A stretch of 64,000 bases of DNA from positions 6,209,001 through 6,273,000 of the forward strand of contig NC_134029.1 of the NCBI RefSeq assembly GCF_964204645.1, given 5' to 3'. A program made the position numbers and the translations under genes. The stretch comes from Tubulanus polymorphus. Taxonomy: Eukaryota; Nemertea; Palaeonemertea; Tubulaniformes; Tubulanidae. Positions 1 through 45,133 of the stretch are shown piece by piece. The notes under the pieces were generated by a model, which saw only the letters and a program-made list of their open reading frames with translations, searched no databases and was not told the origin of the DNA. Numbering within the stretch: position 1 is the stretch's first letter; every line of letters begins with the position of its first letter.

Positions 1-3000
1 GATTTCAAAATATAGCGCCAGATATGTGGCAGTAATGCGATACTATTAGAATGATCAGATCTAAATGTCAAAGTCTTTGCGCACGAGAATGAGGATTTAG
101 AAGCCATTTTCAGCCGTAAAGGTGCGTCAAAGCTTCCATGTATATATGCTAAGCCGTATAGTATAACCACTATTACCTTAATTTTTCATAGAATCTGCAC
201 GATAGCCGCAAAAAAGCTCGACAAGACCTTTCCAATAAGTATATCTATCAACGTTGGTATTGGCTTAATTTCCGGATCATGGCTACGAAATGAGTAAGAC
301 ACGTATTCAAGTAGAGAACCCCATTAGGAATATAGACCGCCAGCAAAAATAGAAGATACCTTATTTCATAGCGATACGCCTACCAAGACAAAGGATGTTC
401 ACCATCTCGGCGTGAAAACGGATAATTGCGTTCAGGTTATTTTATCGTTACTTGCCTTTTGGGCAGTAAACAGGTTTTTACAGCTGAAATATCACATTCG
501 GCGCGCATTTCTTTATTTCATAGCAATTGAACGAACTTCAACCTTTTCGCAATGATCATGAATAACTACAAACCAGAGGTGAAACCCGAGCTATCCCGAT
601 GGCAATTTGCCTTTCGTCGACACGAAAATTGAATTTTCTAATTCGTAAACAAAACGAAATTATTCAATAGCGTCGGAATAAGAGAAATTGCAACGGACGA
701 CTTTTATCATGTTAGCACTACAATTAGAATAATTGCCGGCTTGATTCGCTGAAACAACGTTGTTTGCATTTCCGTTTGCTGCCTTGTAAATAAGAGATCG
801 TCGCATTTACATCAATAAAATATTTTATGATTGCGTTGCAACAAAAACAAGCGCAATTTATTTCCATTAATGATATGTTCTGATCGCTGAAGCCCTTCGT
901 ACTATAACGGCAGCAAAGAAAACCGTTTCGAGGCCAGAAAGTGCGTGTGATTAGAAGACAATGAACGTCCAGTTAATTGGGAATTAAATTTACGTGATTA
1001 CGGGCGATAAGTTTTCTGATTCTTCCATCGAATCTGAATTCGTTGAATACAGGTATCAGGGTATTTCGTCGTGTTTGAACAATTTATTCCTATCATGAAA
1101 TCATATTCACCGTATTCAACGAGATTCGTATGGAAAACCCACGATCCTCAATTATTGATCCAGTTATGAATGCAAATAATAAATTCCGAAGTCTTAATCT
1201 AACAAATTGAAATAAAGGTATATCGATTAGTCAAGATCGAAACGTACACAACGGATAAAGACCCTATGATGATCATTACTTTTCATACATTGGAGTTGAT
1301 GAGTCAGATTTTCTAAAGGAAAATCATCATTTATGTACGGGTACATACCTGCGATTGAAAATTGAAGTAAACTCCAGCGTTTCCACTCGATCAACTCGCA
1401 TCCGTCCATTTTGTTTGTATTCGTAGGGTATATTGCTAACTTCATATATAGATATATTTATATATCCGAAGCTTGTCGATGTCGGAAGATTCTGCTGCTA
1501 CACTGAACTGCGAGAGCAAGTCAATCTTTCTATCGATCACATTTGCGAGCGTCGCCGAAACACCATTCTCTTTTCGAGCTGCTCGCGTCAAATCCATAAT
1601 ACAGAGAGGAAAGCGTGTTCCTGACAACGGGAGGTTTATGTTACGTAGATTTCTGATAGATCTGCGGGTTTTAATGAAAGCGGATAATGAAAAATACTAA
1701 TTTAATCTTCGTTGCGGTAGACATGTTGTAGGTAGACTGCCCAACGCCGCGGGCGTATGAAAAATATAAGCGGCAGGGATAAGTATGACATAGCGTACAT
1801 ACTGCCCCTGCAGACGTTGTCAATTAGACATAACACCGGAATATCGGTAAATCCACTGCTTAACCATTGCTCGTCGCATGGCTTAGCCGAAGATATGAGT
1901 TTGATAGAATTTAAACTGCTTTCTCGAGTGGCTGGGAATTTTGAAACTAAGGCCAGTGTGAACATCCGGTATGGACCTTCAGATCGTATTTACAGTCAGG
2001 GTCCGTTTTAATGGCATCCTTTTCGATGCCATTGATCGCTATACGCCAACGTTTTTCAGTGAACAAATTTTCCTAATCTAATTCAAATTCGATAAAAAAC
2101 CGCCACGTGTTCCATTGGTCCCAACAGGGACATTATAACGGGCTTTCACTGTTTATGTATCAGTCTAGCTACTGTTTGCTCAGTCGTTGTTTTACGTCAT
2201 TGTCAAACACACATCGCCTCATGATATTATTTTAGTAAAAATTCGATTTACCGATACATTAGAATTTCGCAAGTATTGAGTCCAACCATTACCTATTCCC
2301 CATCAGAGCAGTTTTGATGTTGTAAAAACAGCGTAATGTCGGAGTTTACTCCGAACAAAACAAAAATCGCCCACCTCTTTACATATATACGTATAGAGAC
2401 AACGTAAGGCACGACCTTTTCACCGTCATATCTTGTGATCTTAAACAATCAGTAAAAAAGCATCAGCCTTCTTCTGCTAGCAGTAATCAAGGATCAGTTT
2501 CGGCATCATCAGCAATGCGGTATAATTGAATTCAGTTAACACTTTTGTCAGCGGCGTCGACTAGTTGCAATAATGATTAGTTTCGCGATGTAACTGATGT
2601 GGACGCAGTTATAAGATGAAAAATCTCACACTAGAAATCAATTTGAATATTTATTAATCGACTGAAAGTACGTAGTTACGGCTGTTGACTGTTGACGTTA
2701 ATTAACAGGAAATTAGGCAGAGCTATTAGACTTCAAATTGATGTAATTCTAGGCTTCGCATCGTCCATCCGCATTTATTGAAATGTCGCCTCTAACTCGT
2801 AGAACTAACATCTTTTTGATTCATCCATTCAGTGCTGATTAAACGTCAAAACAGATTTTTCGTAAGTGACGGTTAGAAATGTTTCTGGATGTAATTTCTT
2901 ACAGCTGAGTGATCGGATATTCACCATAGCATTGAACCACGAATGAACAGATAGTTGTTGTCAATATGTGAAATTATACCTATCAAGTAAAATTTTCATT

Positions 3001-4388
3001 GGGATTAGATATCTGAAAAGCTTGAAATCCACTCAATGAACTATACTGTATAGACTTTGCCCAAGTCAGATCCGTTTAACTCGGATGACCGTTCAGCTCG
3101 GATCTTTTTAAATATATTTTTTGACACTGTAAATGAAATAAACAGCATACAACTCGCATATCACTCAAATCGGACACATTTCTACTGTCCTAAAAGATTT
3201 GACTTGAGCGAAGTCTACCGCAATATGAAATGTTACAGACTATACGAAAATGGTATTTATCAAATTTCTCGGAAATTGATGTCAGAAAAGAGTTTTGCTT
3301 CCGATCCTCAATTCAGATAATACGATTACATTGATGCATTCTTCACTCGACTCAGCGCGCAAATACGAAAATATACATCGATCGTATTTCATCAACAAGA
3401 AATCATCATCTTTCGATGACGCCATCCATCGGAGAGCGTTGATGTATTCGTGGTTTTGTATGTATCCCGAATGATAAGTATATGGCAGCATCCTCGTGAA
3501 CAGCTCACAAAAAAACCTTCGGATATTCAGCAGACGAAGTATCGTGTGACGCATGTTCATTGGAAATTGCAATTTTGCGTGAATTCCAAAACCATTATTG
3601 ACAGAACGCCAAACTTGCAATCGGTGATCTCCGTTAGATGCACTTTTTACTACACGAATCAATGTTGATTGTATGTTTTACCATGTAATTCTCTTGTGTG
3701 TTTCGTGATAGGTTTGATCAGGGAGGCTTCACGCCTCCTTGGTATAACGGACGACCTACCGGACGTTTGGCGACCACCAACGCGCTTTCAGCGATAATCG
3801 ACTATTCGGTGCATGCGGATGCTAGTTTTGGCCGAGGCAAAGAAGTATAAGTATCGAATTATATTCTCAAAACCTACGCGGATTGCGGTAGAATATCAAG
3901 TCGGGGTCCATTTTCGTAGGTCATCTACGAGAAAACAACGAGAAAAGGCCTCGACTAACTCGGGTTTATAATCCTTTTTACAGTTTCCAGGCGCTATATT
4001 TTTGGTACTCGCTGGGTCCGTATTGTCCCTATTTTTTCTAATTCAATCTTTTTATTTCATTCATATCACTGGATTGGAAAAGAAAATAGATAGTAGGGAA
4101 AGCGAAGTCTATTATGTTGATCTGTTTAATCAGTCATAATATAGGAAATATAATTTTAATTTCGAGGCATCGTTTTCATTGTCGATTCCCTTTTTCTGTT
4201 AGTCTCCGTCAATCTGAGTTTGAAAATGATACTCCTGAAATTGATGGATGGATGTAAGTATGCTGGAAATACGATGCATTTATATAGTTATTTCATCAGT
4301 TCAAGGTCCAAGTTCAACATAGATTTTGTATAATTTGGTAACGAAATTAGACGACTATATTCTTCCTTATGCATTTTTATACCTTGAA
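1..4388. other. gene-poor region, no supported gene
   Basis: I see no exon chain, RNA gene or conserved domain here. Open frames are short and none has recognisable composition. A 126-codon open frame on the minus strand (3662-3282) has no family signature and no clear splice context. A TTTATT at 4051-4056, which is AATAAA on the minus strand, is a reasonable poly(A) signal for the protease gene ending at 4389. Confidence 0.5.
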
Positions 4389-7300
4389 TTAAAGGCACAC
4401 TAATGCAGCTCCGGACCAAGTACCATCGGCTAAGCAAGTCCTACTTTCATCTCCTGACTGGTATATGAGCCCTGGTTTACAGCGATATGTGATAATTTGG
4501 CTTTGATAATATGTACTTGATGGTAGAACCCCGTCGTGGTCTATCGTGGTTGTATCATCGCTGATATCATCTGGGGGACTGCACACAGCGCCTTCGTCTA
4601 CAACAAACAAGACGAAGAAAATGGTTTTTGATTTTGAATTTAGGGAGTTTATGATAAGTGCCAATCGGTGCTATAAGTCTACCTGGTTTTAAAATGGCTT
4701 GAACTGAATAGTTTCGACATTCGGACCAATACGTCGAGAAACCACCCAGTGTCTCACCCACCGCTGGAAACTGATCATAAATCATCCATTTTTTCATGAC
4801 GGCGTTCTCTTGTTCAGGAGTCGTTGGAACGCATTTAGTATATGCCAATGGCTGGACTTCGTTCGATACATACGCCCATCCCAATACGTCACCTGCTTTG
4901 GCAGAAATTCGCTCGGTCGAGTTAAGAGGGATGGTCATCATCGTACCAGCAAATGTTTGGACGTAGGTCTCGCCGACGAGCAGAAAAGTGTTATCGCTGA
5001 CTAGCCGCCATACTTGAAAATGGACGGCTCTACTGCTGTCAGTGAAAAATGCCCATTCAATAATGGAACCATCGACAGGGATAGTTAGGGACTTAATAAT
5101 GTTGACATGTCTGTTTACATCTCTGTAGTGCTGAGGCACCATACCGTGTCCGATTGTTATTTGTAGTTCGTGGATGCCTAGAAAGTAAAACACCCTAACG
5201 CATTCATTAACTTCATTTTTATGAATGTCCAGCTGATATTGTATTATCGTTATGTATAGTAAAATCAACCAACCATCAACGATATCTAATTAAGATAGCA
5301 AACTCTGCTGGGCTACTACTACTGTAGACTCTTATTGCATTAATGTACGTACTCTGGCAGTTAGGAACAGCTCCAATCCATGTTTCATTTCCCATGCAAA
5401 CTCGGTGAAATTCCTCCTCAGTGGGACTGACGAAGCCAGTTAGACAGGCATATGACGCTACATTTCCCTGATGATAAGTCGCCAATGTTCCATCCATGAG
5501 AGAAGCATTCTGGTAAAGTGGCGGGACAGAACATCCATCTGAAAAAAAAGCCACTCACTCGATTACTCGTTAGGTATACGGTGACAAGTATGGTGATTCT
5601 AAATGAAGGAAAGGAAGTAGAACAACCTTGTTTGCAAAGTTGGTCGGCACATAGTCCACAAGTTCGAGGACAAAATGACTTGGCATAAGATTCGTATTGC
5701 GTACACATCACTGGTATTCTTAACAAGAGGCCGGGACAGTCCTCGTCTTGAACATCCTCGCAACTGGATGATACTGAAAATAATGTGAAAATCGACAATG
5801 AAAAATAGCAATATTCCCCAGCCGATTGTTTTTTTTATTTTCGACAGACGATTAAGTCACATACCAGGAGATGCACTGCCCGCACATACAAATGGTTTTG
5901 TTAATTCACAGTCAGAGCTTTGCCACGAACCACTTGGCATCAAAACTCCGCAGTCGTCATTATCGGTTCCCCAATCCCAATTGCTGTATCCAGCAAACGG
6001 CATGCCTCCCCATGTCCAATCTCCATTTACATTTTTCTCTAGACCGATCCACGCTGATGAAGAATAGTCGAGCTGTGTGACACTGAATTCAAAAGATGGC
6101 AAAAATCTTTACAATTTCCAATTTTACTCACAAAATCATTCCGCTGATTACGTACATGAGATTTCGAACGATTCCATTCTCTTGTGAGTCATGAATGTTG
6201 GCCAGCGAGTAGCCTGAATTTGGACAAGTAGCTTTCGCTTCAGCCTGGGACATTCGCTTTTTAGATAAGCGAAAGCAGTGACCATTATGCTCATAATCAC
6301 CAACACTACAACCTAGAAATTGAAATTAGAAATCTTCGGGGTATGGCGTCATTCGCGACTGATCAAAGTTGTTTTTTGACAGAATCTGTTTGATTTGACG
6401 CATTGAAACTTCGTATATAGCGTCGCTCGATTCGGTTTCTGGAAACGCATTGTATTATTATCAACGCAATAAACGATGGTATATTATCATTTACCGCTGC
6501 AACTTCGATCCGTCACAGACCATGCGCCATTACTCAGACACATGATAGTGTGTATAGCATCGCCGCCATTAGCACAAGATAGTTGGACAACATCGCCGAC
6601 ATGGTAGCTCGACTTGGCAATGGAAATCATCTGTTCTACCGTTGCATTGTATTCCGGGGGTTGGCAGCTAACACAAAACGCTGAAAATAATATACATTCA
6701 ATTCTATGATTTCAGCTTACTTCAAAATCGTATTCTTTGTAATCTTTGATTTTACATTCATTTTCTTCACTTAATAAATGCTTATACTTGCCGAATCTAC
6801 TGAGGGATATCATTCGATGCCTTACCTTTAACAGGCGGGTTCCCACAGTGGTTACAGGAGGCGTGGCAGCCGATGAATCCTGCGAGGGAATCACAAAATA
6901 ACGAATCGGAAGTCTTCATTTCTAGACAGTTCGAATACGAATCGGTGCACTCATCTATTGGAAAAATAGGCAATATGTGAGCAATGGATTAAGACGTGTC
7001 GGATTTTAGTTATCAAATCACATCTTCATTTTAGATTAATGCTTCGATACCTAATAGACATGGGTCACATAGATGTTGCTGGCATGATTTGGTATCCGTA
7101 TAACACCACGGTGCAGGCCCTCCATCTGGATTTCTACAGTAGCTATGGCCGCCCTGGATGCCGGTTCCTATATAACTGAAAGTTATATTTTACATATTAT
7201 TTTATGCAACGATGGGTCATTTTCGCTAGTTAATAATAATAGAATTTCTTCCACTTACTCAGGATTCAACGGATGCACCGAACATTTTGGATCCACTTGT

Positions 7301-10300
7301 TCCCAGTTTACGCATGGTATGTATTCTTTGGTATAGCTTACATTGCCGGCGTATGAAGCGCCTCGATCCGCTAGATTATAACAGAAATCATCCTCTGAAA
7401 CAAGAAAATGACAACGTATTTCATTTTCACTCTTCCACTTCTTCTCCCAACAATTAAAGACTACCATCTACTAGAGCAAAACGTCGTCTAAACAATTCTT
7501 TGCCGACCAAATCCAACAGTGAGCTGTTGTAATACAATCATTTTACCAGTTCGGTGTTGCCAAAACATCCGGAAAATAGAAATCATCCACCAGACGATCG
7601 TGTAGAAATTACCTGTGATGTATGATACAGAAGCAACGAATCCTTTGGCGTTGTATATTTCATTACTTTCGAAAACAACACTTGCGTAATTGGTTAGGCT
7701 GATGACGGACCTTGAGACATTACTGGTACCACAAAATCTGAATAAAATGATTAGCACAATTCAATCGATAATCTACCGAAACGGAAATCCTGGCACAATG
7801 ACGCACAAAGCGTTTGATATATCTAAATGGAAGGAATTGCTGCATCTAAGACGTTTAAATTCAGAAAAGCCAAGTATAACTAGAAGTGTAATTCTATGAA
7901 CACTTAACTGTTCGCCAGCTTGACCGGGAAACCTGCTGTAAATTATTAGCTTGTCCACGCAATCGACTGTGTGAGTTTCTACTTGAACATCGATTTCCTG
8001 AATTGTTATTTGAATGAAAGTATCTTCTGGAGCCTGGAAGATATTAAGAAGATACTTATCAAATTCTTTGCCATAGCAAGGCTTTTCGAAAATGATACAA
8101 AATCAAATTTAGACTCTTTGTATTTGACGTCTACCTGAATTAGCCATGTACAGTGATCTCCGTCGTAGTAGTTATTGGGCCATCCCGGTGACGTAATCGA
8201 TTCAATGGTGTTCGTACTGTTCAAAATGATATTGTGTCCGCATCCTGGAATATTAAGAAAAAAAAACAGATTAAACGAATAATGCCATTTAGTATGATCC
8301 AAGTATTAGTATCGGGAAATGGTGTGGTGGTGTATGGTATGGTATGGTATGGTATGGTGTGGTATGGTGTGGTGTGGTGTGGTGTGGTGTGGTGTGGTGT
8401 GGAGTGGAGTGGTGTGGTGTGGTGTGGTGTGGTGTGGTGTGGTGTGGTGTGGTGTGGTGTGGTGTGGTGTGGTGTGGTGTGGTGTGGTGTGGTGTGGTGT
8501 GGTGTGGTGTGGTGTGGTGTGGTGTGGTGTGGTGTGGTGTGGTGTGGTGTGGAAGGTGTGGTGTGGTGTGGTGTGGTGTGGAAGGTGTGGTGTGGTGTGG
8601 TGTGGTGTGGTGTGGTGTGGTGTGGTGTGGTGTTGTTCTCATTAATCGGGTGAAATGAATTTACCGTAATACAGAGGATAGTAATAGCAGTAATACAATT
8701 GGATTTCTCCCCACCATCCGCTGTGTTTTGGTTGTAAGGTTCCCGTAATGTTGTGATCGTCGGTACCAAATGAGAAGATTTCCATGCGATTGACTGTACC
8801 TGATGAAATGAAGATTCTACTAATATCAAAAAGGATTGAAACTGACTGAATTGGAGCATTCGATGAAATAGCCCTCCACAAATATAGGTTAATCATAGAT
8901 TCTTACCAGAAACCACTGGACATTCGGAGTGACCATGGAGTGGAATCAGATAAAAAGGGTCTGTGAGCGGTAAGTGTGTATCGTCATTTCCGGTGTATTC
9001 ATGGCAGCAAAATGTAATGACGGTCGAATCGTTTGTATAAATCCCAAATGGAAGCGGTCCGTACGTCTCATCTGGTTGATTAGCAGAGTATCCGTAACCA
9101 GCAAATGATACCGTAGTTGTCGACATACCTAAAAAGGAGGAAGCGGAAACTAACAGTGCGATCCTGTTAAACTTCATTGCAGTTTCCCTCTTTGTAAATA
9201 ATTTGCTTTCTTTTTAAAAATCAACTTAAAAAGTTATGTACTTTGGGGACAGTCGCTATTGGCTCCCGCAAAAATGCAGTAACTTCCTTGATCCCAAACA
9301 GCCTGATTATCGGTCGAGACAGGTATATCCGCCATACAAAATAGTTGGTAAATAGTGTAGAAGTCTAGCATTTTCGCTGGCTGATATACTGGGTTCCACC
9401 AGTAGTTATTGGCACCAGGTTGCACCGATTGATGCCGCATTGCTGGGGTCCAGTTTGGAACGGTTCCGCAATCGGCTTCCTCATCCATTACCATTGGAAT
9501 ACCGTATCTCCCTGATGGCCACTCGACTACATCTAAAATACCAAATGTTGCACATCATCTATTCAGTTACTTGTCTGTGGTTTAGTTCCCCGATCGAATG
9601 TTTTTACACCACTTAGATGAAATTGTTTTAAGCTCATTCAATTCTAAAGCCTATTTATCGCAAATATATTTTGTCGATTGTGTTGGCGTAAGTTTTTTGA
9701 TAAAGTAGACTGGCTGAATTTACCTGGGTAGCTGGCGCCGTCACAGGTTGGACCTCCAGTTGGTTCGGGACATATGCATTTACATGTGCCATCGTAATAT
9801 CCCCAATATCCTCCGTTCTGACAAGCGAGTGGTGTTTGATTTGAACAATTCTGCGCTGAAAGTGCAATAAACTGTAAGTGAAACTTCCACGAGTCGTGTA
9901 TGTGAGGTAAAAGGATTAAATCTTTTCTCACCGACGCAGCCATAAAATATCTGACCATACATAACATCATAATAACTGAGAGTCAGTTTAGAAACATCCG
10001 CTAAGTATACGTTATTTTCGTCTTTAACATTATATATCGGATGGCCGTTAGTACTGAAATCCTGTTGAAAGAATTGAAAATATTGGAAATTATGTGTATT
10101 AAAAACGCTCGAAAATCCTTTCACTCACCGAATTCTGTTCAAAAGGTAGTTAACAACTTACGAATTTGCCATAATGCATGACTGACGATAAGTCATAATT
10201 TATTGGGTATTTTGTGTAATGGGTTCCCGAAAAAAGATCTGTAAGTAGGGAAAGACATGAATTAATTTCGCACACAAGTTTCATCCTTGTAAGTAGATCC

Positions 10301-12313
10301 GATATTGATATGCAATTCTTTAATATCTTTGAAATCTAGTTTTTACCCTTATCAGTATTCTGATCCAAAGGATTGATGTACTGATCACGTTCTACTCGCG
10401 TTTGTTCGTGTGAGAATCCAAGGGAGTGCATAATCTCGTGCAATATGGTCGTCTGAAAGAGTTTCAGAATTAGCGAAATTCATGACTGATTTTTTTTAAT
10501 TACTGGTTCTATACTAACGGAAAAGTCGCATGATGATATTTCTTGTGCCGAAACATTGAGGTTACCAATGAAGGACCAACACCCCTCGTCACTGTAAATG
10601 CACCAGAAAAGAAATAATCGCGATCATATTCGGTGACAACCAAGAAGAGTCCGATTCAATGAAACGGACTTAGATCAAGGCCAGAAAATGTATGAATTAC
10701 CTGATAATAAACTTTAAAAAGCCGATGTGCGAAACTCCATAATCTGCATGAACGTTTTCGTAGTAAGGAATGAACTCCAAACACAGAACTTTTTCCAAAT
10801 ATTCCATTACCTTAATCGTTTTCTCTATCTGCCCTGTGCCTACAAATGATTTTATTACAACTCACATTCTGCCCACCTACACTTCACTTGTTCAATTACA
10901 GTATTGGTAATTATTTGAAGTGCCACACGTTGCGGTAATTATTTGAAGTGCCACACGTTTCGGTATTTTTGACCATCATCAAGTGCAACATTCACCTGAA
11001 TGTTCTTTGTACTTACCGACTGCTTCATCGAATGTGTAGAACACCTTGCCATTTTCCCAAGCCAATGAATCATCGGTTTGTATGGCTATGTCCCGTTTCT
11101 TACGGCTCTTTGTCCTTCGATCATGCGCATCTTTTTCGTCGTGTTCTCTCTTTTCGTGTTCAGTTATTTTACCAGTAACGAAATTATTTGAGCGTCGCCT
11201 TGCCTTGATTTTCGATTTCGTTTTCCTGGTTTTCTTTCTCTTCAATTTTGAGCCACTTCCCACGTTTAATATCGATCCATCATTTTGTTTTGATTTCAAC
11301 TTTTTAGCTTTCTTCGATTTTAGAGAACTAACTGCCTTGTCGATCTAGCGAATAACGTTAACAGAGAGCGTAACATTGACTAAATGCGTTGAAAAGATGA
11401 TTTCTGAAGATAAAAAACCCACCGACACCTGACAATGATCTTTCTAGGGTGAGATCGAAACATCGTGTTCTTTTAATTGTCTTATTGAATAAATTCTCTA
11501 TTTTCTTTTAAACTTTTAATCTATACAAAGTGAGTTTTTTTATCTTATAATCCGTGCACCGTGCTTTCTTACCGTCGATTTCCCTTTCGCTATGTCAAAC
11601 GCAGTACGAAGAACTTCTTTCTGGCTTTCCCCGTCGAGTTTCCCTTTCCCTGTTTTAACGATTCTATCGAGTCGTTCAACTTCAACATCCATGGCTGTTA
11701 GATGATTTTCATTTGCAAAATCGTCCTGAAAATACATGCGTTGGATCTTTTTGAATCGACATTCGGAATCGACGATTGGAATACAAGTTTAAGTTTGTTA
11801 CACACATTCGCGTTTCTGGAATGGCTTCCTGCATTTAGCACATGACTTAACCGCGACTTCTCACCGCTGGAAGGCTCCAATGTTCTGAACAGTCCTTCGC
11901 CGTCCAAAAAGATCTGCAATTGTAATTATACAAAACAAGGTGTTTTTCAAATAAACGTACCAATAATGAACCATTTCGGACGACAATTAAGAGATCTTAA
12001 GTTAATATATATCTAAATCCGATAATTCATAGATCATTTTCGGCGGATCTGTCAGTGATTACCTCGTTCAACCGTTTCGGGTTGAACTTTTTACCATTGC
12101 GAACGCTGTGTCCTCTACTATTAACACTCTCATTGATCAGATTAGCATCGGGCACGGGTGCCTTTGTCCCTAAGGCAACGCCCGCTATGCCCAAAATTAA
12201 GGTGAGTAGGCTGCAATGAAAGTGATATAGAAATATAGAGTATCCTCAATTACTATGTCGAGTGAACGTGGGTATAATTTGCTTGTAACTTACCTGAGAT
12301 TATGTAGTTTCAT
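4389..12313 (-). CDS. mosaic secreted astacin metalloprotease with ApeC, CUB, kringle, ShK, sushi and C-type lectin modules
   Basis: Exons on the minus strand: 12313-12294, 12210-12063, 11913-11806 (donor uncertain), 11725-11573, 11344-11017, 10839-10701, 10591-10519, 10452-10347, 10238-10162, 10061-9932, 9855-9724, 9532-9242, 9128-8907, 8799-8665, 8244-8135, 8033-7933, 7737-7613, 7394-7259, 7175-7051, 6954-6826, 6680-6495, 6312-6132, 6082-5865, 5773-5627, 5538-5353, 5177-4683, 4597-4389. All phases agree, giving about 1469 aa. Order: signal peptide; basic propeptide with a furin-type RKKR near residue 227; astacin catalytic domain with zinc motif HEIMHSLGFSHE from residue 328 and Met-turn SVMHY; EGF (about 430-471); ApeC (about 472-687); CUB (688-799); kringle (800-886); ShK (887-929); sushi (930-991); C-type lectin (992-1124); ShK (1125-1173); sushi (1174-1235); an unassigned beta-rich module (1236-1400); terminal sushi. 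All zinc ligands are present, so activity is expected. The only weak joint is exon 3, where the stronger donor at 11864 breaks the frame. Confidence 0.9.
4683..5177 (-). other. unassigned 165-residue beta-rich module in the astacin C-terminus
   Basis: One exon encodes about 165 residues between two sushi domains. It has alternating hydrophobic strands, the local motifs FQVWRLVSDN, AGDVLGWAY and PLAYTKC, and only two cysteines (in PLAYTKCVP and SECRNY). The pattern resembles a jelly-roll type adhesion module. I cannot name the family. A phase-1 intron on each side makes it an exchangeable domain exon. Confidence 0.5.
8317..8634 (+). repeat. (GGTGT)n microsatellite in an astacin intron
   Basis: About 318 bases of near-perfect five-base GGTGT repeat (ACACC on the other strand) lie in the intron between astacin exons 14 and 15, with a few GGTAT, GGAGT and GGAAGGT interruptions. 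Because of the five-base period every frame is open in both directions, so the open frames here are artefacts. Confidence 0.97.
8665..9532 (-). other. ApeC (apextrin C-terminal-like) domain inside the astacin protein
   Basis: Three exons (9532-9242, 9128-8907, 8799-8665) encode a module starting WPSGRYGIPM. It continues with the FCM, GSYCI and CP spacing, then VSFAGYGYS, LPFGIYTNDS, TFCCHE, DPFYLI and the closing asparagine-rich segment. This order of tryptophan-glycine and paired-cysteine motifs is the signature I know for ApeC domains. In amphioxus these have been linked to binding of bacterial peptidoglycan components. The domain assignment is from motif memory, not a profile search. Confidence 0.78.
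10906..10961 (+). repeat. 28-bp tandem duplication in an astacin intron
   Basis: Two adjacent copies (10906-10933 and 10934-10961) share the core TAATTATTTGAAGTGCCACA and differ at only one or two bases. They lie between exons 5 and 6 of the protease gene. This looks like a recent slippage event. Confidence 0.85.
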
Positions 12314-28544: not shown

Positions 28545-30418
28545 TTTGCAACTTTTTTTTTAGCAAATCGCCATCTGTAACACGTATTTAAATATGTAGT
28601 AAATGACATATATAACATCTAAATTGAGGGGAATTTACCAGACATTCTTGTACCTCATACATTGAAATAAAGTTCCTCAGTAGTATATAAAGGTGTAACC
28701 GTTTTTGGCGTTACTCACCTGTATATTCAAGACGTGGGTGGTAACATACGCGCTCAAAGAAAATTACAACTCCCTATAACAAATATTCCGAACGTGATCT
28801 TCACGAATTCCATCGTTGTCTCAATATAGAATCTGCGCTACATTGTCGAATCTCAAATCCGCTAACGAGTAATTTCTGTGTATATGCAGTTCATTAGAGT
28901 GAGAAATACGTGATCAGTTTTCTCGAAGTGTCGAATTGTTTAACAGTGCTGGGTGCGCATGTAAAGCAACTAACAATGCCCGGCGGACAAGATTCTAACC
29001 GGTCTATATATAATGCGTCAATAGGCAGTCATTTTTTTCAATTACCACGGATTTCATTATGAAATTTGTAAAACCTTCCAACTCCGATCAACAGTGACGA
29101 TTCGTTTTAACACATTCAGGCTGGATATATAATGTGTTTAAATAGGTCGCAAATAGAATATAAAGAATTTCAGAAAATTAAAGTCGATCTCGAACTTTTT
29201 CGTAATGTTGACAGATTTCACAAACGTAAACCCAATCCATATAAATCCCATTCGGATCGTGCTTCGAAATATCACATTAGGAGTATAAACTGAAAATAAT
29301 AACAGTGATCGTTTATCAAAAGATAAATATAAAAATATTGCACAAGAAAGAAATGCGGGTAAATTGGGTCACACGCAGGAATGTCATTCGGTTAGCACGT
29401 TCGAATTGACTTGAAGCTCGTTTTTAGATTTTAAACTGGTCTGACGACATATTTTGATCACTGATAAAAAAATCAACAACATCCTTCCCATATAGATAAT
29501 CATATCTGGGTTAATAAGATAAATGCAAACTCTATAGTTCGTTTTCACAATACGGTCTTAAATCGTCGTATTTCTGCGTGGGACCTGTAAGTGTAAAAAA
29601 TAATGTAATCACATGAGTTGTTTATGCTCGATAATTCACATATTTTTCACACCATTTTTCTGATTACCTGCTACAAGTGGCTATTGGTAAGCAGCTACGA
29701 GCTTTTGGAATAAACCTTTAATCATCTGTGTTTTCTACAAACACTATGAAAATGGTGCGATTGCGCACTTGCTTTAAATATTGTCGTGGACGTCATTAGG
29801 TTCAATGACATATCTACCAATCTAAGACCAGCTTTGGATTAGTTTCAATTCATCTCGATTTTTTTGAAAGGTTCCCCTAGTAGAATGAAATTAAAAATGT
29901 TTCAAACACATTCATCCGAGTGTTTTTTGGCTAATGTAAATTCCTAGATAAAGATGGCTATGTAATTTCTCACGCCCACTGCCGTAGATTCATCTTCTCT
30001 AGGATGTATTCACCCGTACCCTCGATCCAACGTACTTGTACAACGCGTGAAGTGTTCTTCAAAGAGAAAATATTTAACAACAATTGCACAATGACCACTT
30101 GATCCCTTTTCTATATGGGTGTGTTTCTCCAGTACTGGATATCTAAAAATACAATACTGCGATTCGGAATAGAAATAGCTGTACATTTATTCTGTAAAAA
30201 GAGGAGTTAGACGCGTGTCTTTTTTTCGTGTGGATCTGTAATATGGGATCATCAAATGAAAGAAGCGTCAGATGATAAGTTGACAGAAAGTCTTTATTTG
30301 AAAGCTGATCAAGTAAGTTTGCAAACATTCCAGGAATCTTTCAAATTCTCGAAAGAATACCTGGATATCATGTCTCTATTTCTTTGGTTTTTTATAGATG
30401 TGTTCATGAATCACGATC
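28545..30418. other. intergenic region between the disordered-protein gene and the glycosyltransferase
   Basis: No coding exon is supported. A short ATG-led open frame at 30256, followed by GTAAGT (from 30313) and an acceptor ending at 30397, could be a 5' leader exon of the glycosyltransferase. It cannot add protein sequence, because a TGA at 30407 lies in frame just before the ATG at 30419. Confidence 0.45.
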
Positions 30419-32893
30419 ATGGGTGTTGTGTGGCTAAGAAGGGCTATCTTTTTCACTGGATTGATTGTAATCTGGCTTACATTGGTCGTCCTGAACTGTT
30501 TGAATATAGACTGGGCTAGTTTACAAAACCTGAGAAGCAGCGAAGCTATTCAAACGTACGCGATCGTAGCGATGACATGCGTCCTCCATCTGGGAGTAGC
30601 TGACGCCCTACTCCGCACTGTGGTAGTAATCATCCGCGGATGTAGTACGAGGCAGACCGGGTTACGAATGGCAGACGGATCGAAACTCAAACTAGTCATC
30701 AATTACAACTTATTGGCAATATCGGAAGAATGTATCGACCAGACGTTTACGAACATGTATCAAACGTTTATGAATAATCTATCACCGAACGTGACTTTAG
30801 TTTTAGTAAGTACGACTCCCACCGACGAACTTCGCGAATACTCGCTCGCCCAGGTGGCTGAATATCGGCTGCGGATCTACGACCGGCTGATTGCAGAGGG
30901 CGAATTATTTCTGGAAGGTCGTTTCAAAGCGGTCGATTCGCATAGACTTCATCATTTTTGGTTCGATCTTTGCGACCATTTTGGTCTCACCTACGTACAA
31001 GAGAAGTTAGCCGAATTATGCAGTCGTCACAGCTACGAATTCATCTGCGTCCATCGAGTGTCAAATGTCTTGAAAAAATGTGGGCAATATCAGGACCTAA
31101 TACTTTTATCGGAAGGCGAGGATCAAGCGTATACCTACACGGAAAAATGCCTGTATGGTAAATTTTGCCGGCACCACGGGGAACCTTTATTCCAAAACAC
31201 ACCCGATTCTAGAAGACTCGATGGTCGTCATTTCGATTACACGCTAGTTTTAGATAGCGACACCGTCGTACCGAGAGGTACAGCTTTACAACTCCTAGCC
31301 GCCGCCGCGGGGAACCCACGTCTTGCCGTTATCCAACCGAATATAAAACTGGAATTGCCGAAAGAAGCGACCTTCTTCATGTATCTGGAGCGTGTAAGAA
31401 ACGAGTTGACAACGGCCGAAAACAATGCCATTACAAATTTCTTAGGTCAAACTTTATTCTGCGGCAAAGCCTTAATTAATAATCAGTTATACGTAGATAA
31501 AATCATAGGTAGTCCGGTGAACCAATTGGAAATGATACCAGTTGACGTCATGAGTCACGACACATACGAATCGTTGATTTTGCACCCGTTTCCGTTAACA
31601 TCGGTTTCGTTAAAGGAACAACCCACTACAAATCTCATCACGTGGTCTCACAGACAACAACGATGGACTACGGGGGAAGTGATCAACGCCACCTATATTT
31701 GGAACTTGACATTCGGAATGCTGATTCGCTTGCTAAGAATCGTATTTTGGTGTAATTGCTGCGAGCCATTCCGGCGCGTGCGCAATTACCCGCCTTGTAA
31801 CCTCACCGGGCTTTACCTCGTGGCTAAAATTCATTTCAGTTTATTCATAAAACCATTCCTGATAACGTACATATTGCTGCACAGTTTTCTCTACGGAGTT
31901 AAGTTTCGCTATCCGTATATTCCACTAGGCGGTGCATTGGTCGTATGGTTGTTTCTTCCGCGTTTATTCGTCTTCCGAAGAAATCTGCTGAAATATTTGC
32001 CGCTGGAATTGTTGACGTCGATCTTGCAACAAACCTCTGATATCTTTGTCGGTACGTACCGTCTACTCGTGGGCATCGTCGCTGCGTTGTCCCGCCACCC
32101 GCTGAAATGGCTGCCACAGCGCATAATCGAACAGAAATACGAAGTGAAATCGAACTGCGGAATTTTTCTCGACTCGTTGCGTGTGTTCGGTATTTATGCC
32201 CTCGTCGCTTCTATAGCGTGTTTCACACTCGTTCTCGTAGACTTATACGGAATTTACTCGTCGTATTTATTGATATACGTAATGCTGGGAATAATTTCAC
32301 TGCTGCCGATTTATTGTTTCCTGACGGGGCTGTCGCCGATGTGCGGTCGACGTAAAGTATTCAAATTACATCTCAGTCCACCGTGCAACCATGCGCTAGA
32401 ACTGTCCAGTGTTAAACGCATTTACAGCATCGATACTTTGGTCAGACGACGGATGGAAGATTCCGATTTATCGGAACAGAATTTTGATCTATTTCACGCT
32501 GTGCAGCCAAGCGTTGACGACCATTCAAATTGCAGTATTTGTCATATGAGTTACGCAAATGAAATACTACCATCTGTCGAAGATGGACTCGGGCACTTCT
32601 CGGGGAATGGCCACGTGAATTCCGGTTTCGAATCCAATTTTACTCTCTACGAACAACCGTGGCATATTGATGGCCAATTTCCCGGTATTCACACGCGACA
32701 CTTCGATAGTGAAAATAACGAATTGACTCATCGTATATCAGTGGACACAATTAGTCTGTCTGAATTCCGCCCAATCAAAGAATCATTACAATCGTCAACA
32801 TCATCGTCATCATTATGTTCATCATCTTTATCATCATCACAGACGGAATCAGATTTTCTCCCTAATGGAGTGATCGGTGCCCATTTCTCTTAA
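30419..32893 (+). CDS. multi-pass GT2 processive glycosyltransferase, OpgH/MdoH-like
   Basis: A single uninterrupted exon encodes 824 aa; an in-frame TGA twelve bases upstream fixes the start. Two membrane segments (about 6-27 and 43-66) precede a cytosolic GT2 domain. The nucleotide-sugar motif is DSD at residues 279-281, in the stretch YTLVLDSDTVV; AVIQPNIKLEL follows. The acceptor-site aspartate lies in SHDTYES (Asp381) and the processive motif RQQRW is at 412-416. Several membrane helices fill about 430-660, then a Ser-rich cytosolic tail. The VMSHDTYE ... LKEQP ... HRQQRW spacing fits bacterial glucan synthase OpgH better than chitin, cellulose or hyaluronan synthase as I know them. The product polymer is unknown. 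The lack of introns contrasts with its spliced neighbours and suggests retroposition or old transfer. AATAAA at 33067-33072 is a plausible poly(A) signal. Confidence 0.85.
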   Translation: MGVVWLRRAIFFTGLIVIWLTLVVLNCLNIDWASLQNLRSSEAIQTYAIVAMTCVLHLGVADALLRTVVVIIRGCSTRQTGLRMADGSKLKLVINYNLLAISEECIDQTFTNMYQTFMNNLSPNVTLVLVSTTPTDELREYSLAQVAEYRLRIYDRLIAEGELFLEGRFKAVDSHRLHHFWFDLCDHFGLTYVQEKLAELCSRHSYEFICVHRVSNVLKKCGQYQDLILLSEGEDQAYTYTEKCLYGKFCRHHGEPLFQNTPDSRRLDGRHFDYTLVLDSDTVVPRGTALQLLAAAAGNPRLAVIQPNIKLELPKEATFFMYLERVRNELTTAENNAITNFLGQTLFCGKALINNQLYVDKIIGSPVNQLEMIPVDVMSHDTYESLILHPFPLTSVSLKEQPTTNLITWSHRQQRWTTGEVINATYIWNLTFGMLIRLLRIVFWCNCCEPFRRVRNYPPCNLTGLYLVAKIHFSLFIKPFLITYILLHSFLYGVKFRYPYIPLGGALVVWLFLPRLFVFRRNLLKYLPLELLTSILQQTSDIFVGTYRLLVGIVAALSRHPLKWLPQRIIEQKYEVKSNCGIFLDSLRVFGIYALVASIACFTLVLVDLYGIYSSYLLIYVMLGIISLLPIYCFLTGLSPMCGRRKVFKLHLSPPCNHALELSSVKRIYSIDTLVRRRMEDSDLSEQNFDLFHAVQPSVDDHSNCSICHMSYANEILPSVEDGLGHFSGNGHVNSGFESNFTLYEQPWHIDGQFPGIHTRHFDSENNELTHRISVDTISLSEFRPIKESLQSSTSSSSLCSSSLSSSQTESDFLPNGVIGAHFS

Positions 32894-37726: not shown

Positions 37727-39128
37727 ATGAATCTAACACATACGACGGCAACAACAACAACAACAACAACGTTGATCGATAATACGTCGCTCAATACAAC
37801 GTTAACCGATATTCTGAACCGAACTGTGGAATGCCCCGCCGTCAACAAAACAATCGGTAGGATTACACACTATTATTACTCAATCCGATTTTCAATCAGG
37901 ATTTCTATTCAACAGTTCCTTTTCTTCAATTTCGTGGTTCCGGTTTGATCTGTAACGTTATTTTCCAATTTTCAGTAAACTGCTCCGATAGTAGGGAAAC
38001 AAGTTGTAAGTAATTTGAAAAGCTCCTGACTACTCAATTCTACTTCTACGGCTTTTTGAAATTAATTTGAAGATTTCTTAAAAGAAGAACACTGCATATC
38101 AACTCAAACTGTATATCAACGTTAATTCGATTTATGTTGGTTTGCAGATTTATCCGGCTCATGGATATCTCTAGATTGGGCAATCGGTATCACAGTAATT
38201 GCGTCAATCGAACTGATGATCATTATACTGATGTATGACAAAATATTACGTGATTCGCATCGTCAGCAAACAGATTTGCGAGGTAAATTGACTTTTTCTT
38301 ACCGTTTTAAGGTGTGAAGAACACTAAAAAGTTTTGTTTGCAATAGAATCACTGAAGTAGTACAGAATTGAATTGATTAGGCGTAATGTGAAAAGATTCT
38401 AATATTTGTAATTCAGCTAACGTTAATACTACTAAAGATTTGTATCTAAACCTATCTGCTTATATCAATCTAGGGTGAAATCGCATTTCGTAGAATAGAG
38501 TAACTATTTGTATTTTGTCATTACAACAGATTCATCGAAAACTAAGAGAACCAGATTTGCCCCGAGTTCCGTATTTTTCCGTCCCAATTCTGGTGGAGAC
38601 GATTCCGTCAACCTCTTCGCTGACCGGAACGCGGAGTCCGGTTTTCCAAGCGACCGACAAGCAGCGTCGAGCTCCATCGATGCAGCGTCGGATTTTTCGC
38701 AACGACGTTGGAATAGTGAAAGACAGCACTTCAGTAACAGACGATCGATGTCCGAAATGAATTTGGCTCAAATGGGATCCAGAAATAAGACTCGTCTCGC
38801 ACCGCCACCACCGCTACCTCCGAGTCAAATTAGAGCTCAAGGTTACTGTATGGGACAGGCTGGAACTTCAAATACACTTCCATGTAATTTCACCAGTGCG
38901 GCACTCGAGCCGAGGGAAACTTCCTACATAAATCTGGATGATATGGAGATTGAGAGCTCGATTCCACCGGATCTTCCGAGTATTAGTGATATAGAGGGCG
39001 AATTCAGAGTACATTACGAGAGACCGTCATTGCAGTATTCTATGTATACTTCCGACGAACCATATATACCTACCCCACCACCACCGACTTGGAAACCACA
39101 ACCACCTCCGACAACATCTGAAATCTAG
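37727..39128 (+). CDS. single-pass membrane protein with proline-rich cytosolic tail (intact copy)
   Basis: Exons 37727-37856, 37976-38005, 38148-38282 and 38530-39128 join in phase for 297 aa. The N-terminus is a Thr/Asn-rich ectodomain with many N-glycosylation sites and a (ACA)n-encoded Thr run, and no obvious signal peptide. One helix follows (WAIGITVIASIELMIIILMY). The long cytosolic tail has basic juxtamembrane residues, LAPPPPLPPSQ, and a TPPPPTWKPQPPPT terminus, typical of SH3, WW or EVH1 ligands. AATAAA at 39379-39384 could end the mRNA. The gene faces a GPCR pseudogene 336 bp away. The family is unknown; a receptor or adaptor role is inferred from topology only. Confidence 0.72.
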
Positions 39129-39464
39129 AGGATTTGATCAAAGATTGCAAAAATATCGTGATTTCATATCTTTAAATTCTATTTGACAGTTTATTTTACG
39201 ATCAATCATTTCGTTATGACACATAAGACATGAACACTCAATAGATTGTATTCAAGACCGATGTGATTATTATTCTTCGTATCATTCCGGATGACGAGTC
39301 TTAAATTGTGTTTGTTAGGTCACTTACACGAAATACCGTGATTTATCGAGGGAACATTTTATTTCAAATCCGTGAGAAAATAAAACACTTGACCAAATTT
39401 GCATAAAAATGTACAATTTTTTCTGTAGTTCGTTGAACCTAGCATAAGCCAACTAGTATATCTC

Positions 39465-40716
39465 CTAGACGTGTTTTCCTGGCTTTCTCATTCCAGTCAC
39501 TTTACAATGAAAACCGGTGAATGAATTGATTAATTGCCTTCTGAAAACCCTCAACGTTGCCATGTATATGAAGAAGTTGACGCAGAATACAAACTCTCGA
39601 GGAAAATAAAGGATTCTTTCCAACCCATGACAATACATTTTGCTAATGGCGTAAGTTCCATTCGAAAAAGGGTCGATGCGATGATTGACCCAGATCTGGT
39701 AAACTACGTACTCAATGAAACTTTGCAAAAACTTGAATAATGAATTCGGTAAAACAAGTGCTATGTATACAACGACTACAACAAGGAGGGTTTTGCTGGC
39801 TGCGGACTGATGACGGTCTTTCCTATCCGCACAGAGAGCAGCACCAGATCGTTTATTACGTAATACAGCAGTATGTACTGATACTATAATGATAACTACA
39901 GATGGGATTATGTCGTGAAGAAATACCTTTAATGCAAGTAAAAATACCGTATGATATCCGTTTATTCCTAAGTCACGACACTGTAAACTACTAAACGACT
40001 CCTTTCGTATGCGGATCGTGCGCAAATAGATTTCTTTAATCCTAACAGCGTTATCCAAATTCATAACAAATGACCACAAAATCACGACGGCCACAACAAT
40101 TTTGCGTCGATTGACGGTGAAATGTTTCATGTGAAAGAAGGGAAAACGAATCGAAACCAATCTCTCCATAGCAATCACAAGAACTGTGTAGTTTGATACA
40201 GATAAGGCCTGTTGAAAGAATTGATAAGTCAATAAACACAATGGAATCAAACGTCTAGGTAAATATTCAAAATAGTAATAATAGTAATATAATGATGGGC
40301 ATAATTTGTAGTGTTTAGCTACCGTTAACGAGTTATCCATGCACTCTTTCGGAGCCACCCCGACATGGTGTAGGAAACGCCGCATGTAGTACGGGAACTC
40401 CTAAAAACCGAACAGTACATAAATTTGATCGGAACAGGCCAGAGTTATTAGATAGGGGAACCTTTAACGAACTGACTGACATTTCCGACACTTTATCAGA
40501 AGAATGATAGTAAGACCATTGAAGACACATCCCAGTGGAAACAGGAACAATCTAGTCGAGTATTTGTTATAAATGCTAAAATGGCGAATGAACTGATTAA
40601 ACGAATTAAGCAGTAGCCTTTCGCCGCACGATTATCCGTACGCTATCAATGGTAGTGGTCGAGACTGTCGAATTTCGATTTAGTGCTCTTTCCAAAACGC
40701 TGGTAAAGTTGTGCAT
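39465..40716 (-). pseudogene. class A GPCR pseudogene (left unit)
   Basis: This aligns along its whole length with the intact receptor at 45133-43883. It carries a one-base insertion near 40606 and two in-frame stops in the TM2 region (TAA at 40466-40464 and TAG at 40403-40401). From ATG 40385 the remaining 306 codons are open, covering TM3 to TM7. The stops remove TM1 and TM2 from any product, so a working receptor is not expected. Confidence 0.85.
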
Positions 40717-42142: not shown

Positions 42143-43540
42143 TTAACTGCTCCGATAGTAGGGAAACAAGTTGTAAGTAATTTGAAAATCTCCTGACTAC
42201 TCAATTCTACTTCTACGGCTTTTTGAAATTAATTTGAAGATTTTTTTAAAGAAGAACACTGCATATCAACTCAAACTGTATATCAACGTTAATTCGATTT
42301 ATGTTGGTTTGCAGATTTGACCGGCTCATGGATATCTCTAGATTGGGCAATCGGTATCACAGTAATTGCGTCAATCGAACTGATGATCATTATACTGATG
42401 TATGACAAAATATTACGTGATTCGCATCGTCAGCAAACAGATTTGCGAGGTAAATTGACTTTTACTTCCCGTTTTAAGGTGTGAAGAATACTAAAAAGTT
42501 TTGTTTGCAATAGAATCACTGAAGTAGTACAGAATTGAATTGATTAGGCGTAATGTGAAAAGATTCTAATATTTGTAATTCAGCTAACGTTAATACTACT
42601 AAAGATTTGTATCTAAACCTATCTGCTTATATCAACTGCTTGGAAGATTGTTTAAATGAACCGGAACCGAATTTCCAATTATGTACTTCGATTTAAAAAA
42701 GAAAATTCTGTAAATTAGACCGTCGAGCAAACAACTATATCTGTACTTCCATTTCCGATTTCAAAATCAAACCCCCTGTTTCGCTCCCGGCAGGTGTGGT
42801 GGGTCTGTAAGGGACACTCAATCAAAAAATCTAACGAAATTTACAAACAAAATAAACAACAGGGACAATCCCTATTTTAAGATCTATATCAATCTAGGGT
42901 GAAATCGCATTTCGTAGAATAGAGTAACTATTTGTATTTTGTCATTACAACAGATTCATCGAAAGAAAACCAGATATGCCCCGAGTTCCGTATTTTTCCG
43001 TCCCAATTCTGGTGGAGACGATTCCGTCAACCTCTTCGCTGACCGGAACGCGGAGTCCGGTTTTCCAAGCGACCGACAAGCACCGTCGAGCTCAATCGAT
43101 GCAGCGTCGGATTTTTCGCAACGACGTTGGAATAGTGAGAGACAGCATTTCAGTAACAGACGATCGATGTCCGAAATGAATTTGGCTCAAATGGGATCCA
43201 GAAATAAGCCGACTCGTCTCGCACCGCCACCACCGCTACCTCCGAGTCAAATTAGAGCTCAAGGTTACTGTATGGGACAGGCTGGAACTTCAAATACACT
43301 TCCATGTAATTTCACCAGTGCGGCACTCGAGCCGAGGGAAACTTCCTACATAAATCTGGATGATATGGAGATTGAGAGCTCGATTCCACCGGATCTTCCG
43401 AGTATAAGTGATATAGAGGGCGAATTCAGAGTACATTACGAGAGACCGTCATTGCAGTGTATACTTCCGACGAACCATATATACCTACCCCACCACCACC
43501 GACTTGGAAACCACAACCCCCTCCGACAATATCTGAAATC
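42143..43540 (+). pseudogene. broken copy of the membrane protein gene (right unit)
   Basis: Exons equivalent to 2, 3 and 4 are present, but exon 1 is absent and the exon 2 acceptor is lost at the duplication border. Exon 4 has a five-base deletion near 42964 and a seven-base deletion near 43458, each shifting the frame. Its long open frame (42939-43592) is out of phase with exon 3. No intact protein can be made. Confidence 0.82.
42636..42884. mobile_element. 249-bp insertion with 8-bp target-site duplication
   Basis: The left unit has an uninterrupted site. Here the octamer TATATCAA is duplicated on both sides (42628-42635 and 42885-42892). A related copy lies at about 47605-47835 (shared ACCGGAACCGAATT, GATTTCAAATCAAACCCCC-like and CAATCCCTAT segments). 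Eight-base duplications fit hAT-type elements, but no clear terminal inverted repeat is visible. The insertion postdates the tandem duplication. Confidence 0.82.
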
Positions 43541-43882
43541 TAGAGGATTTGATCAAAGATTGCAAAAAAATATCGCGATTTCATATCTTTAAATTCTATT
43601 TGACAGTTTATTCTACGATCAATCATTTCGTTATGACACATAAGACATGAACACTCAATAGATTATATTCAAGACCGATGTGATTATTATTCTTCGTATC
43701 ATTCCGGATGACGAGTCTTAAATTGTGTTTGTTAGGTCACTTACACGAAATACCGTGATTTATCGAGAGAACATTTTATTTCAAATCCGTGAGAAAATAA
43801 AACACTTTATCAAATTTGCAAAATAATGTACAATTTTTTCTGTATTTTGTTGAACCTAGCATTAGCCAACTAGTATATTCTC

Positions 43883-45133
43883 CTAGACGTGTTTTCCTGG
43901 CTTTCTTATTCCAGTCACTTTACAATGAAAACCGGTGAATGAATTGATTAATTGCCTTCTGAAAACCCTCAACGTTGCCATGTATATGAAGAAGTTGACG
44001 CAGAATACAAACTCTCGAGGAAAAAAAAAGATTCTTTCCAACCCAAGACAATACATTTTGCTCGTGGCGTAATGTCCATTCGAAAAAAGGTTGATGCGAT
44101 GATTGACCCAGATCTGGTAAACTACGAACTCAATGAAATTTTGCAAAAACTTGAATAATGAATTCGGTAAAACAAGTGCTATGTATACAACGACTACAAC
44201 AAGGAGGGTTTTGCTGGCTGCGGACTGATGACGATCTTTCCTATCCGCACAGAGAGCAGCACCAGATCGTTTATTACGTAATACAGCAGTATGTACTGAT
44301 ACTATAATGATAACTACAGATGGGATTATGTCGTGAAGAAATACCTTTAATGCATTTAACGATGCCGTATGATATCCGTACATTCGTAAGTAACGACACT
44401 GTAAACTACTAAACGACTCCTTTTGTATGCGGATCGTGCGCATATAGATTTCTTTAATCTGAACAGCGTTATCCAAATTCATAACAAGCGACCACAAAAT
44501 CACGACGGCCACGACAATTTTGCGTCGATTGACGGTGAAATGTTTCATGTGAAAGAAGGGAAAACGAATCGAAACAAATCTCTCCAAAGCAATCACAAGA
44601 ACTGTGTAGTTTGATACAGATAAGGCCTGTTTATAGAATTGATAATCCAATAAACACATTGGAATCAAACGTCTAGGTAAATATTCAAAATAGTAATAAT
44701 AGTAGTATAATGATGGGCATAATTTTTTGTGTTTAGCTACCGTTAACAAGTTATCCATGCACTCTTTCGGAGCCATCCCGACATCGTGTAGGAAACGTCG
44801 CATGTAGTACGGGAACACTTTGAAACCGAACAGTACATAAATTTGATCGGAACAGGCCAGAGTCATTAGATAGGGGAACGTATAACGAACTGATTGACAT
44901 TTCCGACACTTTATCAGAAGAATGATAGTAAGACCATTGAAGAAACATCCCAGTGGAAACAGGAACAAGATCATCGAGTAGTCATTATAATAGCTAACAT
45001 GCCGAATGAACTGATTAAACGAATAAGCGGGAGCCTTTCGCCCCACGATTATCCGTACGCTATCAATGGTAGTGATCGAGACTGTCGAATTTCGATTTAG
45101 TGCCGTTTCCAAAACGCTGGAGAAGTTGTGCAT
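43883..45133 (-). CDS. class A (rhodopsin-type) peptide-receptor-like GPCR, intact
   Basis: A single exon encodes 416 aa from ATG 45133; upstream in-frame codons lack another ATG. The N-terminus carries NFSS and NRNST glycosylation sites. Seven hydrophobic helices are visible, including TM1 (SMILFLFPLGCFFNGLTII), TM3 ending in ERFVSIRFPF at the DRY position, TM6 (LLVVVVVYIALVLPNSLF) and TM7 with NFFIYMA at the NPxxY position. The third intracellular loop is basic. The overall pattern, with Pro in TM6 and a short tail, resembles invertebrate FMRFamide-type receptors, but the ligand cannot be inferred. The ERF and NFFIY variants are unusual. The gene is convergent with a broken membrane protein gene. 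Confidence 0.82.
   Translation of the reverse strand: MHNFSSVLETALNRNSTVSITTIDSVRIIVGRKAPAYSFNQFIRHVSYYNDYSMILFLFPLGCFFNGLTIILLIKCRKCQSVRYTFPYLMTLACSDQIYVLFGFKVFPYYMRRFLHDVGMAPKECMDNLLTVAKHKKLCPSLYYYYYYFEYLPRRLIPMCLLDYQFYKQALSVSNYTVLVIALERFVSIRFPFFHMKHFTVNRRKIVVAVVILWSLVMNLDNAVQIKEIYMRTIRIQKESFSSLQCRYLRMYGYHTASLNALKVFLHDIIPSVVIIIVSVHTAVLRNKRSGAALCADRKDRHQSAASKTLLVVVVVYIALVLPNSLFKFLQNFIEFVVYQIWVNHRINLFSNGHYATSKMYCLGLERIFFFPREFVFCVNFFIYMATLRVFRRQLINSFTGFHCKVTGIRKPGKHV

What the first reader, a model, noticed from the sequence alone, without database searches (positions are those of the whole stretch)
4389..12313. Astacin protease fused to an ApeC domain and eight other extracellular modules
The sequence shows an intact HEIMHSLGFSHE zinc site joined in one frame to EGF, ApeC, CUB, kringle, ShK, sushi and C-type lectin modules. 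Astacins with EGF, CUB or ShK tails are well known; ApeC is known as a putative microbial-ligand domain. I do not know of an astacin that joins ApeC, kringle and C-type lectin. The inference is a protease targeted to microbial or glycan surfaces, possibly complement-like in logic. The alternative is a digestive or hatching protease with adhesive modules.
Basis: partly seen in the sequence, partly recalled or inferred. Interest (0 to 1): 0.78.

Follow-up and report, generated by a model that had tools for sequence, protein, structure and literature searches.

The report
Astacin protease carrying microbe-binding ApeC module
This animal gene encodes a secreted zinc protease fused to a bacteria-binding module and ten other extracellular modules; the fusion is real and belongs to a family of at least six genes in this genome, but a limpet mucus protein with the same module set was published in 2020.

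Summary
On the minus strand, window 12313-4389 reads as one complete 27-exon gene. It has GT-AG introns throughout, an ATG with a signal peptide, and a stop codon, giving 1469 aa. Pfam finds astacin, ApeC, CUB, kringle, C-type lectin and three sushi modules above threshold. EGF and two ShK-like modules are supported by cysteine pattern. One 164-aa module is new to Pfam. The two-gene alternative is essentially excluded: five other loci carry the same module order at about 25-45% identity, and a sixth carries its first half. All keep the zinc motif, and all 11 module junctions in the window gene are phase-1 introns. The architecture is not new to science. Limpet protein P-vulgata_14 (Kang et al. 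2020, PMC7333891), found in pedal adhesive mucus, has peptidase_M12A, ApeC, CUB, kringle, sushi x2, C-type lectin and ShKT. This run adds the gene family, the conserved unnamed beta-sandwich module, longer kringle/sushi tails in paralogs, and purifying selection on one duplicate pair. Likely role: a furin-activated secreted protease held on bacterial cell wall or mucus by ApeC. This is inferred, not shown. The window gene's lectin module lacks the classical calcium/sugar motifs, and no complement-type serine protease is present.

The parts
12063..12313 (-). exons 1-2: start codon, signal peptide (MKLHNLSLLTLILGIAGVALG) and start of propeptide
   Evidence: splice model; hydrophobic N-terminus; exon 1 is only 20 nt and not confirmed by cDNA
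11017..11913 (-). exons 3-5: Cys-free, very basic propeptide ending in RKKR|D, then start of catalytic domain
   Evidence: basic site also in paralogs
9932..10839 (-). exons 6-10: astacin catalytic domain with HEIMHSLGFSHE and SVMHY Met-turn
   Evidence: Pfam Astacin 96.5 bits; crayfish astacin 1AST E=1e-23
9724..9855 (-). exon 11: EGF-like module, 6 Cys
   Evidence: cysteine pattern conserved in 6 paralogs
8665..9532 (-). exons 12-14: ApeC domain, 8 Cys
   Evidence: Pfam ApeC 1-208/208, 102.9 bits; genome search
7613..8244 (-). exons 15-17: CUB domain, 4 Cys
   Evidence: Pfam CUB 52.8 bits
7051..7394 (-). exons 18-19: kringle with 8 Cys (6 canonical + 2)
   Evidence: Pfam Kringle 43.2 bits; Cys conserved in paralogs
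6826..6954 (-). exon 20: first ShK-like module, 6 Cys
   Evidence: cysteine pattern, tblastn to paralogs
6495..6680 (-). exon 21: sushi 1
   Evidence: Pfam Sushi, 3 stretches
5865..6312 (-). exons 22-23: C-type lectin-like domain without EPN/QPD or WND motif
   Evidence: Pfam Lectin_C 61.1 bits; motif check
5627..5773 (-). exon 24: second ShK-like module
   Evidence: Pfam ShK 16.9 bits, below cut-off 20.9
5353..5538 (-). exon 25: sushi 2
   Evidence: Pfam
4683..5177 (-). exon 26: unnamed 164-aa module, predicted beta-sandwich, 2 conserved Cys, conserved in five paralogs
   Evidence: no Pfam hit; paralogs E 6e-19 to 6e-8; AF2 pLDDT 73, pTM 0.74
4389..4597 (-). exon 27: sushi 3 and stop codon
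   Evidence: Pfam Sushi best stretch 1406-1468 (one search gives the same exon in protein 1)
8320..8633 (.). (TGGTG)n pentanucleotide array, 63 copies, inside intron 14

Best explanation
The locus is a functional single gene for a secreted, multi-module astacin (M12A) metalloendopeptidase. It is one of at least six full-length colinear paralogs in this invertebrate, of the same kind as limpet mucus protein P-vulgata_14. Likely working: (1) secretion by signal peptide; (2) zymogen activation by a furin-type cut after RKKR, which frees the catalytic domain; (3) the ApeC domain, with help from the other binding modules and the unnamed beta-sandwich, holds the enzyme on bacterial peptidoglycan or mucus glycans at a wet epithelial surface or in secreted mucus; (4) the zinc protease then cuts proteins there, either microbial surface proteins or host mucus proteins. 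Steps 1-2 follow from the sequence and family knowledge; steps 3-4 are inferred from tested ApeC proteins of other species and from where the limpet protein is found.
For: Complete model with GT-AG introns, start and stop. Full-length ApeC and astacin Pfam hits. All zinc ligands and the Met-turn present, closest solved structure crayfish astacin. Five paralogs keep the same module order, each matched module by module, and a sixth has astacin-EGF-ApeC-CUB. All seven keep HExxHxxGxxHE, so protease and ApeC have been kept together through divergence to about 30% identity. Purifying selection in the C11 duplicate pair: omega 0.225 overall, 0.08 in astacin. All 11 module borders are phase-1 introns, p=0.0002 given 15 phase-1 among 26. 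Short-form ApeC proteins bind peptidoglycan and agglutinate bacteria in amphioxus and molluscs (PMC8361754, PMC9585378). P-vulgata_14 was detected in bulk pedal mucus of all three limpets.
Against: No transcript or activity data. This ApeC was not itself tested for binding, and ApeC sequences diverge widely. The C-type lectin module lacks the classical Ca/sugar motifs. Tested ApeC proteins bind bacteria but do not inhibit their growth, so an antibacterial effect of the fusion is unproven. The substrate is unknown.
Confidence: 0.55

Rival explanations
1. A matrix- or mucus-processing enzyme: ApeC and the other modules bind host glycoproteins or glue, and the protease matures or sheds secreted mucus, adhesive or cuticle proteins, with no direct antimicrobial role.
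For: P-vulgata_14 is in limpet adhesive mucus. Oyster ApeC and astacin gene families are linked to larval attachment (PMC10225672). Many astacins process extracellular matrix (general knowledge; review PMC9848320). The first ApeC protein, apextrin, is found in the apical extracellular matrix.
Against: The only measured ApeC ligands are microbial wall components and related glycans.
Confidence: 0.32
2. A digestive or hatching astacin with adhesive modules.
For: Astacins are often digestive or hatching enzymes (PMC9848320).
Against: Eleven conserved tail modules and multi-copy retention together with ApeC fit a tethered rather than a diffusing enzyme. The only located relative is in foot mucus.
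Confidence: 0.08
3. A chimeric gene model: a short astacin gene followed by a separate ApeC/kringle/lectin gene.
For: No cDNA was available here.
Against: The same order occurs at five other loci, and module junctions here are all phase 1. A limpet transcript and mucus protein join the same modules.
Confidence: 0.02
4. A complement-like cascade protease.
For: CUB, EGF, sushi and kringle are shared with complement and clotting proteases (general knowledge).
Against: The catalytic domain is a zinc astacin, not a trypsin-like serine protease. Sharing common modules does not show shared logic.
Confidence: 0.03

Closest known systems
P-vulgata_14, Patella vulgata pedal mucus protein (Kang et al. 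2020, PMC7333891)
   Same: peptidase_M12A, ApeC, CUB, kringle, sushi x2, C-type lectin, ShKT in one secreted protein; the listed order agrees with the order of these modules here as far as the table can show
ApeC-containing proteins of complex architecture (mollusc groups 8 and 9, PMC9585378; survey Li et al. 2021)
   Same: ApeC with more than ten extracellular domains
   Different: their module lists are not in the text held, so it is not known whether an astacin domain is among them
Apextrin (MACPF-ApeC)
   Same: secreted, with an ApeC domain; two loci that look like this also lie in this genome
   Different: perforin-like domain in place of a protease and tail modules
Astacins with kringle, CLEC, ShKT, sushi, CUB or EGF tails (PMC9848320 Fig. 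1)
   Same: same catalytic family and tail module types
   Different: ApeC is not in that review's list of astacin partner domains

Membership tests
Astacin family M12A | HExxHxxGxxHE zinc motif, Met-turn SxMHY, four Cys in the catalytic domain | tested here: met
   HEIMHSLGFSHE, SVMHY, 4 Cys; Pfam 96.5 bits; 1AST E=1e-23
Astacin family M12A | signal peptide, propeptide latency, proteolytic activity | tested here: inconclusive
   signal-peptide-like N-terminus and RKKR site seen; activity not testable here
ApeC-containing proteins | ApeC domain of about 200 aa with eight conserved cysteines | tested here: met
   208/208 profile positions, 102.9 bits; 8 Cys
ApeC-containing proteins | peptidoglycan binding | not testable with these tools
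   shown for other ApeC proteins
P-vulgata_14-type proteins | astacin + ApeC + CUB + kringle + sushi + C-type lectin + ShK in one chain | tested here: met
   ShK below Pfam cut-off
P-vulgata_14-type proteins | orthology by sequence | not tested
Calcium-dependent C-type lectins | EPN/QPD and WND motifs | tested here: not met
   absent in the lectin module of the window gene; paralog C2:3.82M has QPN and WND
ShK channel-blocking toxins | functional Lys-aromatic dyad | tested here: not met
   no Lys at the dyad position in either ShK module (sequence, position from general knowledge, hand alignment); also absent in P-vulgata_14
Complement/MASP-type proteases | trypsin-like serine protease domain | tested here: not met
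   no such Pfam hit

The most novel reading that the evidence does not exclude
Exon 26 defines an uncharacterised extracellular domain family (beta-sandwich, possibly glycan-binding) that is a regular part of a multi-gene class of pathogen- or mucus-targeted astacins, an invertebrate effector in which wall recognition by ApeC and proteolysis are built into one chain.
Probability: 0.35. Interest if true: 0.55.

Novelty: new member of a known kind. Interest (0 to 1): 0.36.

Why it matters
It shows that the odd limpet mucus protein is not a one-off: the same long architecture is kept as a divergent gene family with intact catalytic sites, so a microbe-binding type of domain (ApeC) and an astacin protease appear to be under joint selection. 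It also points to a conserved unannotated module and gives a clear test of whether ApeC can aim an enzyme at bacteria or mucus.

Tried and rejected
A chimeric gene model was rejected because of colinear paralogs. The exon 26 module has no Pfam match and no convincing PDB match by sequence. Its fold search gave best Z 7.7 (lectin-like domain of Cwp84), then phage proteins at about 6.6-6.4 and several CBM6 and F5/8C-type jelly-rolls at about 5-6.4, all in the range of a common arrangement, so no family is claimed. Decayed extra kringle/sushi modules were sought in window 1-4388 and above 12400 and not found. A plasmid search with the N-terminal part found only Thermus M12 peptidases over the astacin part. 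Of the two papers holding both 'ApeC' and 'astacin', neither describes a fusion.

Full report
What is there. The minus strand of the window, 12313 to 4389, contains a complete gene of 27 exons. Every intron is GT-AG, phases are continuous, and the conceptual protein runs from a signal-peptide-like start to a stop, 1469 aa. A simple splice and codon-usage predictor, trained on this gene and run without homology hints, recovers most of the same exons; this checks consistency only, since the training gene and the test gene are the same. Pfam finds ApeC (102.9 bits, complete), Astacin (96.5), Lectin_C (61.1), CUB (52.8), Sushi (three stretches) and Kringle (43.2) above curated cut-offs, and ShK (16.9) just below its cut-off. 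An independent genome-wide ApeC search also picks out these exons. Cysteine counts per module fit the known folds: EGF 6, ApeC 8, CUB 4, ShK 6-7, lectin 6, sushi 4-5; the kringle has 8, two more than the usual six, and the aligned paralogs share them. Exon 26 codes for 164 aa that no Pfam model recognises.

Is it one gene? Yes, as far as sequence can show. The own genome (267.8 Mb, 77 contigs) has 34 ApeC exon matches and over 150 astacin exon matches. At C2:2.16M, C2:3.82M, C2:29.98M, C11:7.60M and C11:7.62M the same modules recur in the same order: astacin, EGF, ApeC, CUB, kringle, ShK, sushi, lectin, ShK, exon-26 module, then more sushi and, in most, kringle. Identity to the window gene is roughly 25-45% per module. 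The paralog models are automatic: a single ShK or sushi between the larger modules is not recovered in every one, and in the C11:7.62M copy the CUB part was not recovered by blastp although tblastn hits its first exon. A sixth locus, C6:20.24M, has at least astacin-EGF-ApeC-CUB. Pfam on the C2:2.16M model confirms Astacin, ApeC (153 bits), CUB, three kringles and three sushi; its ShK is just under cut-off. All seven keep HExxHxxGxxHE. The five full-length paralogs show a Met-turn of S[IV]M[HQ]Y type; the C6 model is too incomplete to show it. The two C11 genes are a divergent duplicate pair under purifying selection, omega 0.225 overall and 0.08 in the astacin part. All 11 module borders of the window gene have phase-1 introns, the signature of exon shuffling.

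How it probably works. The propeptide is Cys-free, strongly basic and ends in RKKR, and comparable basic sites precede the catalytic domain in several paralogs. Furin-type activation is therefore likely, though not tested. The catalytic domain aligns with crayfish astacin through the zinc site and Met-turn. ApeC proteins of amphioxus, oyster and snail bind peptidoglycan and bacteria without inhibiting growth (PMC8361754, PMC9585378). The simplest inference is a protease held on bacterial wall or mucus by ApeC. The lectin module of this gene lacks EPN/QPD and WND, so classical calcium-dependent sugar binding is unlikely, whereas the C2:3.82M paralog has QPN and WND. The ShK modules lack the toxin dyad lysine (hand alignment on the sequence). 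The exon-26 module is predicted as a beta-sandwich (pLDDT 73, pTM 0.74, five sequences). Its structural neighbours include lectin-like and carbohydrate-binding jelly-rolls but none above Z 8, so a glycan-binding role is only a possibility.

Comparison with what is known. Kang et al. 2020 (PMC7333891) reported P-vulgata_14 from limpet bulk pedal mucus with peptidase_M12A, ApeC, CUB, kringle, sushi x2, C-type lectin-like and ShKT. They noted only hypothetical homologues and proposed an antibacterial role in the mucus. The 2023 astacin review lists kringle, C-type lectin, ShKT, sushi and others as astacin partners but not ApeC, and the mollusc ApeC paper mentions complex groups with more than ten domains without naming astacin in the text held. 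This gene is a new member of that known kind. What appears new is the gene-family scale, the long kringle/sushi tails of paralogs, and the conserved unnamed module.

Limits. The species and phylum are unknown, no transcripts were available, the limpet sequence could not be fetched, and paralog models are rough at their ends. Exon 1 (20 nt) and the exon 3 donor are the least certain splice sites in the window gene.

Noticed in passing
G000 C2:8883346-8883882 (L024) and C2:26634932-26635472 (L025): Two other ApeC loci that look like apextrins: the C2:26.63M model matches ApeC (160 bits) and weakly MACPF (20.1 bits, below cut-off); C2:8.88M looks alike in its model but was not run against Pfam.
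   Followed up: partly
G000 C11:7598000-7635500 (L022, L023, L028, L029): Divergent head-to-head duplicate pair of the long astacin-ApeC gene, dS 0.22, omega 0.225.
   Followed up: yes
window 30410-32893 (+): 827-aa uninterrupted ORF with membrane-like segments, a DSD motif and QQRW, resembling a processive family-2 glycosyltransferase, but with only a weak Pfam match (Glyco_trans_2_3, E 0.47) and no plasmid match.
   Followed up: partly
window 38499-40400 and 42918-45199: Tandem duplication of a rhodopsin-type receptor gene (7tm_1 in the second copy) together with a proline-rich ORF; the two copies are very alike.
   Followed up: no
window 8320-8633: Pentanucleotide array (TGGTG, 63 copies) in intron 14 of this gene; a possible site of length variation.
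   Followed up: no
G000 C2:29978500-29994999 (L026, L030): The longest paralog carries at least four more kringles and many sushi repeats after the exon-26 module, so tail length varies greatly in the family.
   Followed up: partly
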